Assembly: GCA_949502235.1 (NCBI GenBank)
Contig: CATBDC010000018.1
Coordinates: forward strand, 1-64,000
Reading direction: 5' to 3'
Source: an uncultured Lachnospiraceae bacterium
Lineage (GTDB): Bacteria > Bacillota > Clostridia > Lachnospirales > Lachnospiraceae
Length of the DNA stretch: 64,000 bases
The notes beneath the pieces are model-generated. The model was given only the letters and a program-made list of their open reading frames with translations, searched no databases and was not told the origin of the DNA. The translations under genes and the position numbers were made by a program. Shown here piece by piece: positions 13,488 to 46,000 of this stretch (position 1 is the first letter of the stretch; every line of letters starts with the position of its first letter).

Positions 13488-13560
13488 AGCTGGAAATCGG
13501 ACTTGAACCGACGACCCCTTCATTACGAGTGAAGTGCTCTACCGACTGAGCTATTCCAGC
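13488..13560 (-). tRNA. tRNA-Thr (anticodon CGT)
   Basis: Minus strand GCTGGAATAGCTCAGTCGGTAGAGCACTTCACTCGTAATGAAGGGGTCGTCGGTTCAAGTCCGATTTCCAGCT; 7-bp acceptor stem, GTTCAAGTC T-arm, loop CTCGTAA. Confidence 0.95.
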
Positions 13561-25584: not shown

Positions 25585-25594
25585 GGTATGATTA

Positions 25595-25647
25595 CAGGTC
25601 TGCGCATTTACTGCGCAGGACGTGAGAAAATGATTCAGGTGTCAACC
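25595..25647. repeat. Degenerate copy of dispersed hairpin repeat
   Basis: caggtctgcgcatttactgcgcaggacgtgagaaaatgattcaggtgtcaacc; CTGCGCA/TGCGCAG stem with tttac loop. Confidence 0.65.
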
Positions 25648-25666
25648 AATGATAGGAGGTACGATA

Positions 25667-26164: not shown

Positions 26165-26594
26165 TCTGTACGGTTGGAATATCATTCGAAGGACGGAAGT
26201 TTTAAGATGCCCTTCCTAACGCAGATTGGGCAACACTCCGGTGAACTAACCGCTAACGGAGGCTAAGGAGTTCAGGAAAGCCTTCACTCCTAAGTCTCCA
26301 TAAGCGGTGGATTTCACCTTCATTAAAAACGCCCTCTGACGTCTGCTTATAGGAAGGGCATCTTAAAACTTCCTGTGCATCGAAAATCATGTTACATCAG
26401 CACAGATGGAGATTTTTCCAGTGCACAGGCAGTTCGGGGCAGTTCTTCCCCATACAGGCAGGGCAGCGCTCCGGTGAGCTAACGATTAACTCCGAGACTT
26501 CGTTAGCGGTTAGTTCACCGGAGTGTTGCCCAGTCTGCGTTAGGAAGGGCATCTTAAAACTTCCGTCCCCCGAACGATATCTCAACCGTACAGA
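26165..26594. repeat. Nested inverted-repeat block; outer arms 26165-26258 and 26501-26594 (94 bp each)
   Basis: Arms are reverse complements with 6 mismatches counted by eye, all transitions; contains the element at 26195-26373 and a 15-bp palindrome (26469-26483/26509-26523). Confidence 0.9.
26195..26373. repeat. Hairpin element copy 2: 23-bp perfect inverted arms plus structured core
   Basis: ggaagttttaagatgcccttcct (26195-26217) / aggaagggcatcttaaaacttcc (26351-26373); core 26240-26318 aligns with 45597-45673. Confidence 0.9.
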
Positions 26595-45521: not shown

Positions 45522-45546
45522 AAAAGATGAGTTGGTTTTAGAGGAC

Positions 45547-45733
45547 GCATCCATGTAAAAATAAATAGAACCCTCACAAACAGGGACAACATTACAGGGA
45601 ACTAACTATTAACTACGACTAAGACGTTCGGGAGAGCCCTCACGCCTAAGTCTGCGTAAATAGTGGATTTCCCTTCCATTAAGAACGTCCCTTGATTTGT
45701 TTGTGAGGGTTCTATTTATTTTTACATGGATGC
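45547..45733. repeat. Hairpin element copy 1: 36-bp perfect inverted arms plus structured core
   Basis: gcatccatgtaaaaataaatagaaccctcacaaaca (45547-45582) / tgtttgtgagggttctatttatttttacatggatgc (45698-45733); core aligns with copy 2. Confidence 0.95.
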
Positions 45734-46000
45734 TGTGCTTCGAAAAGCGAAAATCTTTATACGTTTGCCAGAAACTCTGCGGCGCGCGGTGAGGGAAGTT
45801 AAGATTAAAAAGTGAGGTGTGAGAAGGAGGGAGACTTAAAGGTATATGGAGTGGAGATTTTCTCTGTCTGGCGGTGAAGCGCATCCAGCATAAGCGGCGT
45901 GGTTTGTTTGTCTGACGGTGTCAGCAGGCCCCTTCCTCCTGCACCTGCGTCCTCCGACCACAAATTCAAACCCCCGCACATTAATATATATCAAGATGAA

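What the first reader, a model, noticed from the sequence alone, without database searches (positions are those of the whole stretch)
45547..45733. 187-bp hairpin element whose core shows compensatory base changes relative to a second copy
36-bp perfect inverted arms enclose a core that aligns base for base with the core at 26240-26318. Paired positions covary: GGGAA/TTCCC vs GGTGAA/TTCACC; ACTATT/AATAGT vs ACCGCT/AGCGGT (three double compensatory changes); an inner stem GACG/CGCC vs GGAG/CTCC; and apical GGG/CCC vs AGG/CCT. Loops CTA, GGAT, TTC, TCA and CTAAG(TCT) are conserved. This implies selection on a structured RNA or single-stranded DNA hairpin. The outer arms of the two copies are unrelated in sequence, which is odd for an ordinary MITE.
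Basis: seen in the sequence. Interest (0 to 1): 0.72.

Follow-up and report, generated by a model that had tools for sequence, protein, structure and literature searches.

The report
Dispersed mobile hairpin with self-matching arms
The 187-base hairpin is one of dozens of copies, in this gut bacterium and its relatives, of an apparently undescribed non-coding DNA repeat that sits just after genes, keeps the same unpaired bases in its folded core, and whose two arms change together, so that copies with the same core can carry different but still matching arms.

Summary
Window 45547-45733 has 36-bp perfect arms, folds far better than shuffles (z -13.8), and its core pairs base for base with the copy at 26226-26340 (9 pairs changed on both sides, 4 on one). 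A covariance model finds about 55 copies in this genome, 30-37 in two sister species, and copies in 24 of 299 genomes of its family. In 53 distinct cross-genus copies 95% of cells pair and 33 of 34 pairs show double changes. No Rfam family matches the element.

The RNA reading is only partly supported. G.U cells (46) do not exceed A.C cells (82) among 3864 Watson-Crick cells. In one relative, copies with identical cores carry different arms, each mirrored left to right (49 of 63 minority states shared), including mirrored deletions. This points to arm-to-arm copying in DNA (template switching).

Copies were recently mobile, yet old shared copies are constrained in place (conserved unpaired sites 0.8% versus flanks 4.1% divergence). 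83 of 122 copies follow a co-oriented gene, mostly within 80 nt of its stop codon.

Best reading: a new, long REP/BIME-like mobile hairpin module; its mobilising enzyme and host function are unknown.

The parts
45547..45733 (+). whole hairpin element, oriented with the upstream gene
   Evidence: inverted repeat, fold z -13.8, model match 45582-45696 + at E 1.7e-32 in the whole-genome search
45547..45582 (+). left arm, 36 nt, perfect
   Evidence: in other copies the arm is usually 24-25 nt, here the lower internal loop has become fully paired
45698..45733 (+). right arm, 36 nt, perfect complement
45582..45696 (+). conserved core (model R1, 115 positions, 34 pairs)
45602..45604 (+). unpaired CTA, conserved across genera
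   Evidence: model positions 21-23
45665..45668 (+). unpaired GGAT facing the CTA, conserved across genera
   Evidence: model positions 84-87
45543..45546 (+). 5' foot GGAC before the left arm
   Evidence: same motif before the arm in nearly all intact copies
45734..45742 (+). 3' foot TGTGCTTCG, matching TGTnnnTnG(G)
   Evidence: in G610 the recent 197-nt identity block ends at this foot
26195..26373 (+). second copy of the element, arms 26195-26218 / 26350-26373
26165..26594 (.). composite: the second copy plus an inverted partial copy (100-nt inverted repeat, 92%)
   Evidence: tail-to-tail pairs are common in this genome
43986..45521 (+). co-oriented upstream gene; its stop codon is 25 nt before the element
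   Evidence: ORF list; conserved in five sister species without the element

Best explanation
The element is one copy of a dispersed, non-coding, mobile hairpin module of Lachnospiraceae, related in kind to REP/BIME elements but several times longer. Shown: tens of copies per genome; recent copies at new sites; a core with conserved unpaired bases and a fixed pairing scheme; arms that differ between copies yet match within each copy; arms that change together even when cores are identical; a tendency to lie 10-80 nt after the stop codon of a co-oriented gene; constraint on old copies in place. Inferred: the folded DNA strand is the form recognised, by an enzyme acting in trans that reads the unpaired bases and the GGAC/TGT foot rather than the arm sequence; arm matching is kept by copying one arm from the other while the hairpin is formed (template switching), so arm sequence can drift fast; after insertion the copies serve, or at least suit, the 3' ends of host transcription units, which is why they are retained.
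For: Copy number and spread. Structure: 55 of 64 pairs with double changes in A1; 95% paired and covariation 0.671 against 0.196 shuffled. No excess of G.U over A.C: 46 against 82 of about 4000 cells, 14 against 21 in A1. Concerted arms: L296, L297 and L298 have identical 109-nt cores but different, mirrored arms; 49 of 63 minority arm states are shared by both arms of a copy, 0 of 5000 shuffles. Recent mobility: 197 nt identical at two G610 sites with different flanks; sharp left boundary in G162. In-place constraint: 0.8% against 4.1%, p = 5e-4. Position: 83 of 122 after a co-oriented gene, 73 of them within 80 nt. REPs are likewise mostly downstream of genes (PMC3733652); template switching maintains hairpins (PMC8794818).
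Against: No mobilising gene was found: neighbours are ordinary genes, Y1 transposase genes do not track the element, and carrier G086 has none. No clean empty site or target duplication was recovered. Constraint in place suggests a host function that a purely mobile reading does not need. Recombination between copies with different arms could also give some of the arm patterns in G162.
Confidence: 0.58

Rival explanations
1. A 3'-UTR RNA element: the plus strand is transcribed with the upstream gene and folds to protect the mRNA end, limit read-through or bind a protein through its conserved loops; covariation reflects RNA selection.
For: Polar position after stop codons, median 40 nt; conserved unpaired bases and in-place constraint.
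Against: A.C mismatches are at least as common as G.U pairs on this strand in every subset; 39 of 122 copies follow a gene in the opposite orientation; no terminator-like site at the window copy; at least one copy lies after what reads as an intrinsic terminator of the upstream gene (L178, seen in sequence); arms change in concert without RNA selection being needed.
Confidence: 0.25
2. An ordinary MITE of a cut-and-paste transposase, with the hairpin core carried as cargo and the real ends further out.
For: Composite units with an outer inverted repeat in this genome; left boundary in G162 lies outside the hairpin.
Against: Outer sequences differ between subfamilies while the core is conserved across genera; 3' boundary in G610 is at the hairpin foot; no target duplication or transposase found.
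Confidence: 0.1
3. A folded single-strand recombination site like integron attC, used by a tyrosine recombinase.
For: Structure conserved, sequence variable, and unpaired bases as likely recognition points, as in attC (own knowledge; an attC-like novel motif is reported in PMC8632094).
Against: Copies are dispersed next to ordinary genes, not in cassette arrays; no RYYYAAC/GTTRRRY box pair is evident in the core by eye.
Confidence: 0.04
4. A sponge for the RNA-binding protein CsrA, as proposed for TwoAYGGAY.
For: TwoAYGGAY modules lie in the same repeat units in G610; a CsrA link was proposed for that family (PMC4333381); the conserved loop here holds a GGA.
Against: No TwoAYGGAY match in the window element even at E 10; one conserved GGA per copy; csrA presence was not tested.
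Confidence: 0.03

Closest known systems
REP / BIME elements (GTAG- and CGTC-tagged; GTAG class linked to RAYT/TnpA-REP)
   Same: Dispersed intergenic palindromes, often paired in inverted orientation, mostly downstream of genes, thought mobile as folded single-stranded DNA (PMC3733652; PMC8266576)
   Different: REPs are 20-40 bp; this is about 180 nt with a long conserved core. No GTAG tag and no linked RAYT found. The complement of the 5' foot reads GCGTCC, which contains CGTC, but the published CGTC repeats are short and were not reported from Clostridia
TwoAYGGAY RNA (Rfam RF01731)
   Same: Clostridial, multi-copy in G610, long foldback arms around a structured core, joined to this element in the same units
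   Different: Different core sequence; no match of the TwoAYGGAY model to this element
Template-switch maintained RNA hairpins (PMC8794818)
   Same: Multi-base compensatory changes explained as single events that copy one arm onto the other
   Different: Described in RNA genes; here seen between copies of a mobile repeat with identical cores, with mirrored deletions
bcr1 and other long intergenic repeats of Firmicutes (own knowledge; papers that mention bcr1 are listed, not read for this)
   Same: Non-coding, intergenic, folded, apparently mobile, tens of copies
   Different: As far as known from memory these do not show conserved loops with unrelated arms; not tested here

Membership tests
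REP (GTAG class) | 20-40 bp palindrome with GTAG at one end | tested here: not met
   about 180 nt; foot is GGAC / TGTnnnTnGG
REP (GTAG class) | cognate RAYT gene flanked by the repeat | tested here: not met
   22 of 26 genomes have a Y1 domain irrespective of the element, carrier G086 has none, and the listed coordinates show no gene flanked by copies
REP (GTAG class) | dispersed, intergenic, downstream of genes | tested here: met
Classical MITE | conserved terminal inverted repeats | tested here: not met
   arms unrelated between copies, core conserved
Classical MITE | target site duplication | tested here: inconclusive
   no clean empty site; junctions blurred
Rfam 15 families | match at gathering score | tested here: not met
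   no family matches the element; only irrelevant weak matches at E up to 10
Structured RNA (generic) | covariation supporting the fold | tested here: met
Structured RNA (generic) | G.U pairs tolerated over A.C on the functional strand | tested here: not met
   46 G.U against 82 A.C on the plus strand; the minus strand would read 82 against 46, still only 2% of cells
Structured RNA (generic) | transcribed | not testable with these tools
   no RNA-seq at hand
Intrinsic terminator | stem followed by a T run | tested here: not met
   none found at the window copy
Integron attC site | cassette array with integrase | tested here: not met
   scattered beside ordinary genes; integrase genes not searched genome-wide

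The most novel reading that the evidence does not exclude
The arms are rewritten as part of the mobility cycle: the folded single strand is completed by fold-back synthesis that copies one arm from the other, so each new copy leaves with matched arms and only the core with its unpaired bases is inherited unchanged. Such an element would be recognised by shape and have ends free of fixed sequence.
Probability: 0.17. Interest if true: 0.86.

Novelty: new variant of a known kind. Interest (0 to 1): 0.64.

Why it matters
It gives a natural record of hairpin arms changing in concert within very recent copies, where template switching can be told apart from selection. It warns that covariation alone does not prove RNA function, since a DNA process may have made much of it here. 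It defines a repeat family, apparently undescribed, that sits at gene ends and is constrained in place, so both its mobilising enzyme and its host role become testable. Its company with TwoAYGGAY suggests that this Rfam family may be a mobile hairpin too.

Tried and rejected
Rfam at gathering score and at E 10: no relevant match. Phage, plasmid and IMG/VR searches: no copies at the sensitivity used. Autonomous element between paired copies: the ORFs seen are host-type genes or spurious. Pfam scan of 68 neighbouring ORFs: no shared gene and no transposase among the 25 families shown of 105. Y1 transposase co-occurrence: no link. Precise empty sites: the window site is too diverged; apparent absences between G002 and G003 turned out to be partial deletions of the hairpin or a flank split over contigs. 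Arms derived from local flanking DNA at insertion: could not be tested for lack of clean empty sites. Strand choice from wobble pairs: one recurrent column dominates each count (37/70 G.T, 43/64 A.C), so no firm strand call. Replication-strand orientation in G131: looked at by eye from positions, no clear pattern, origin unknown. Literature searches found no description of this element; only open-licence papers are held and supplements could not be read, so an unnamed entry in a published motif list cannot be excluded (for example the 3161 candidates of PMC8040213).

Full report
Check of the observation. The hairpin is where it was described: 36-nt arms at 45547-45582 and 45698-45733, fully complementary, with a fold 13.8 standard deviations better than shuffles. 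The core aligns without gaps to 26226-26340, 82 of 115 identical, with nine pairs changed on both sides and four on one. The two arms are unrelated in sequence. The 26240 copy is itself half of a tail-to-tail composite.

A repeat family. A pattern from the core, with one mismatch allowed, gave 56 hits in this genome and 0 for the reversed control pattern, and many in two sister species. A model from 25 copies gave 66 matches in this genome, some of them antisense matches of the same hairpins, 31 and 37 in the sister species G002 and G003, one in each of two others and none in a fifth. With one genome per genus, 24 of 299 family members carry it. With a broader model, one genome of another family of the order has two good matches and one of the phylum has a weak match that does not look like the element. 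It was not found in the phage, plasmid and viral collections. G002 and G003 correspond to Lachnospiraceae assemblies CAJTIU01 and CANOKL01, matched by contig number and length.

Structure. RNAalifold on 25 full elements predicts 64 pairs, 55 with compensatory double changes. On 53 distinct cross-genus copies 95% of cells pair, 33 of 34 pairs have double changes, and no shuffle reaches the scores; sliding the partner by 1-3 columns drops pairing to at most 42% (A7 was fitted to the model and leans towards it, A1 was aligned without it). Unpaired CTA facing GGAT, and TAAC, CTAAG and GTAA segments, are conserved across genera, while the apical stem and the arms vary freely. The foot is GGAC before the left arm and TGTnnnTnGG after the right.

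DNA or RNA. If folding of RNA were what is selected, G.U pairs should be tolerated and A.C mismatches not. Over 120 copies there are 3864 Watson-Crick, 46 G.U and 82 A.C cells; in the arms of the 25-copy set there are 2 G.U and 6 A.C. Selection on RNA folding alone therefore does not explain the double changes. The clearest set is genome G162, with 34 model matches. Copies L296, L297 and L298 have identical 109-nt cores, yet their arms differ by substitutions and a 5-bp deletion, mostly mirrored on the other arm. Over 12 copies, 49 of 63 minority arm states occur on both arms of the same copy; random pairing of left and right arms never reaches the observed match (0 of 5000). L296 has a T on one arm only where L291 has it on both, which looks like a change caught half-way. 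Template switching is known to do this (PMC8794818). That the arms change together is shown; that template switching is the cause is inferred, and recombination between copies may add to it.

Mobility. Two G610 copies are identical over 197 nt with different flanks, and the identity ends at the 3' foot. G579 has four near-identical copies at different places, and G162 copies share a sharp left boundary. In G162 the repeat unit continues into a second foldback. In G610 it is joined to modules that Rfam calls TwoAYGGAY. No mobilising gene was found.

Constraint and position. In 18 pairs of orthologous copies in G002 and G003, flanks differ at 4.1%, non-conserved unpaired sites at 4.3%, paired sites at 1.5%, and unpaired sites conserved in other genera at 0.8% (p = 5e-4 against flanks). 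Old copies are thus constrained where they sit, which a purely mobile reading does not predict. Of 122 copies with an upstream gene called, 83 follow a co-oriented gene, 73 of these within 80 nt of the stop, median 40 nt; downstream there is no orientation preference (p = 8e-5). Outside G000, G002 and G003 the count is 33 to 11. Genes were called by a simple codon score, and copies in one genome share ancestry, so these p values are optimistic.

Verdict. It works like a REP/BIME-type mobile hairpin recognised by its shape (inferred), but it is not filed as a REP because size, tag and transposase tests were not met.

Noticed in passing
L303, L304, L305, L306, L323, L324, L214 (G610): Rfam TwoAYGGAY modules are repeated in this genome, have long foldback arms (GACGAAAAAAGAGTGTTGGTATTATAG and its complement) and flank the present element, in L303 and L304 as an inverted pair; this suggests that TwoAYGGAY may itself be a mobile hairpin.
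   Followed up: partly
L295, about 1080-1500 (G162): A second, unrelated foldback module follows the hairpin in the same repeat unit; both are non-coding.
   Followed up: partly
L125 minus strand (G003) against L117 (G002): Another palindromic element (ends GGAGCCTTAAAGAAATAACATGACA) is inserted in the core of an orthologous copy, with what looks like a TAA target duplication.
   Followed up: no
window 25594-25650: A stretch of about 57 bp with dozens of matches in sister species G002 and G003; it resembles the end of the insertion seen in L056.
   Followed up: no
L045 1411-1760 and L067 1330-1740: Copies whose arms have grown to about 116 and 139 nt or more, with 90% and 83% matching.
   Followed up: no
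L173 (G003:C57) against L059 (G002): The hairpin core has been deleted in one species while both arms remain; L067 shows another partial deletion of a copy that is intact in L121.
   Followed up: partly
L325 1050-1391 (G327): A tmRNA gene lies next to one copy of the element.
   Followed up: no
window 13488-13560, minus strand: A tRNA gene, the only Rfam match in the window.
   Followed up: no
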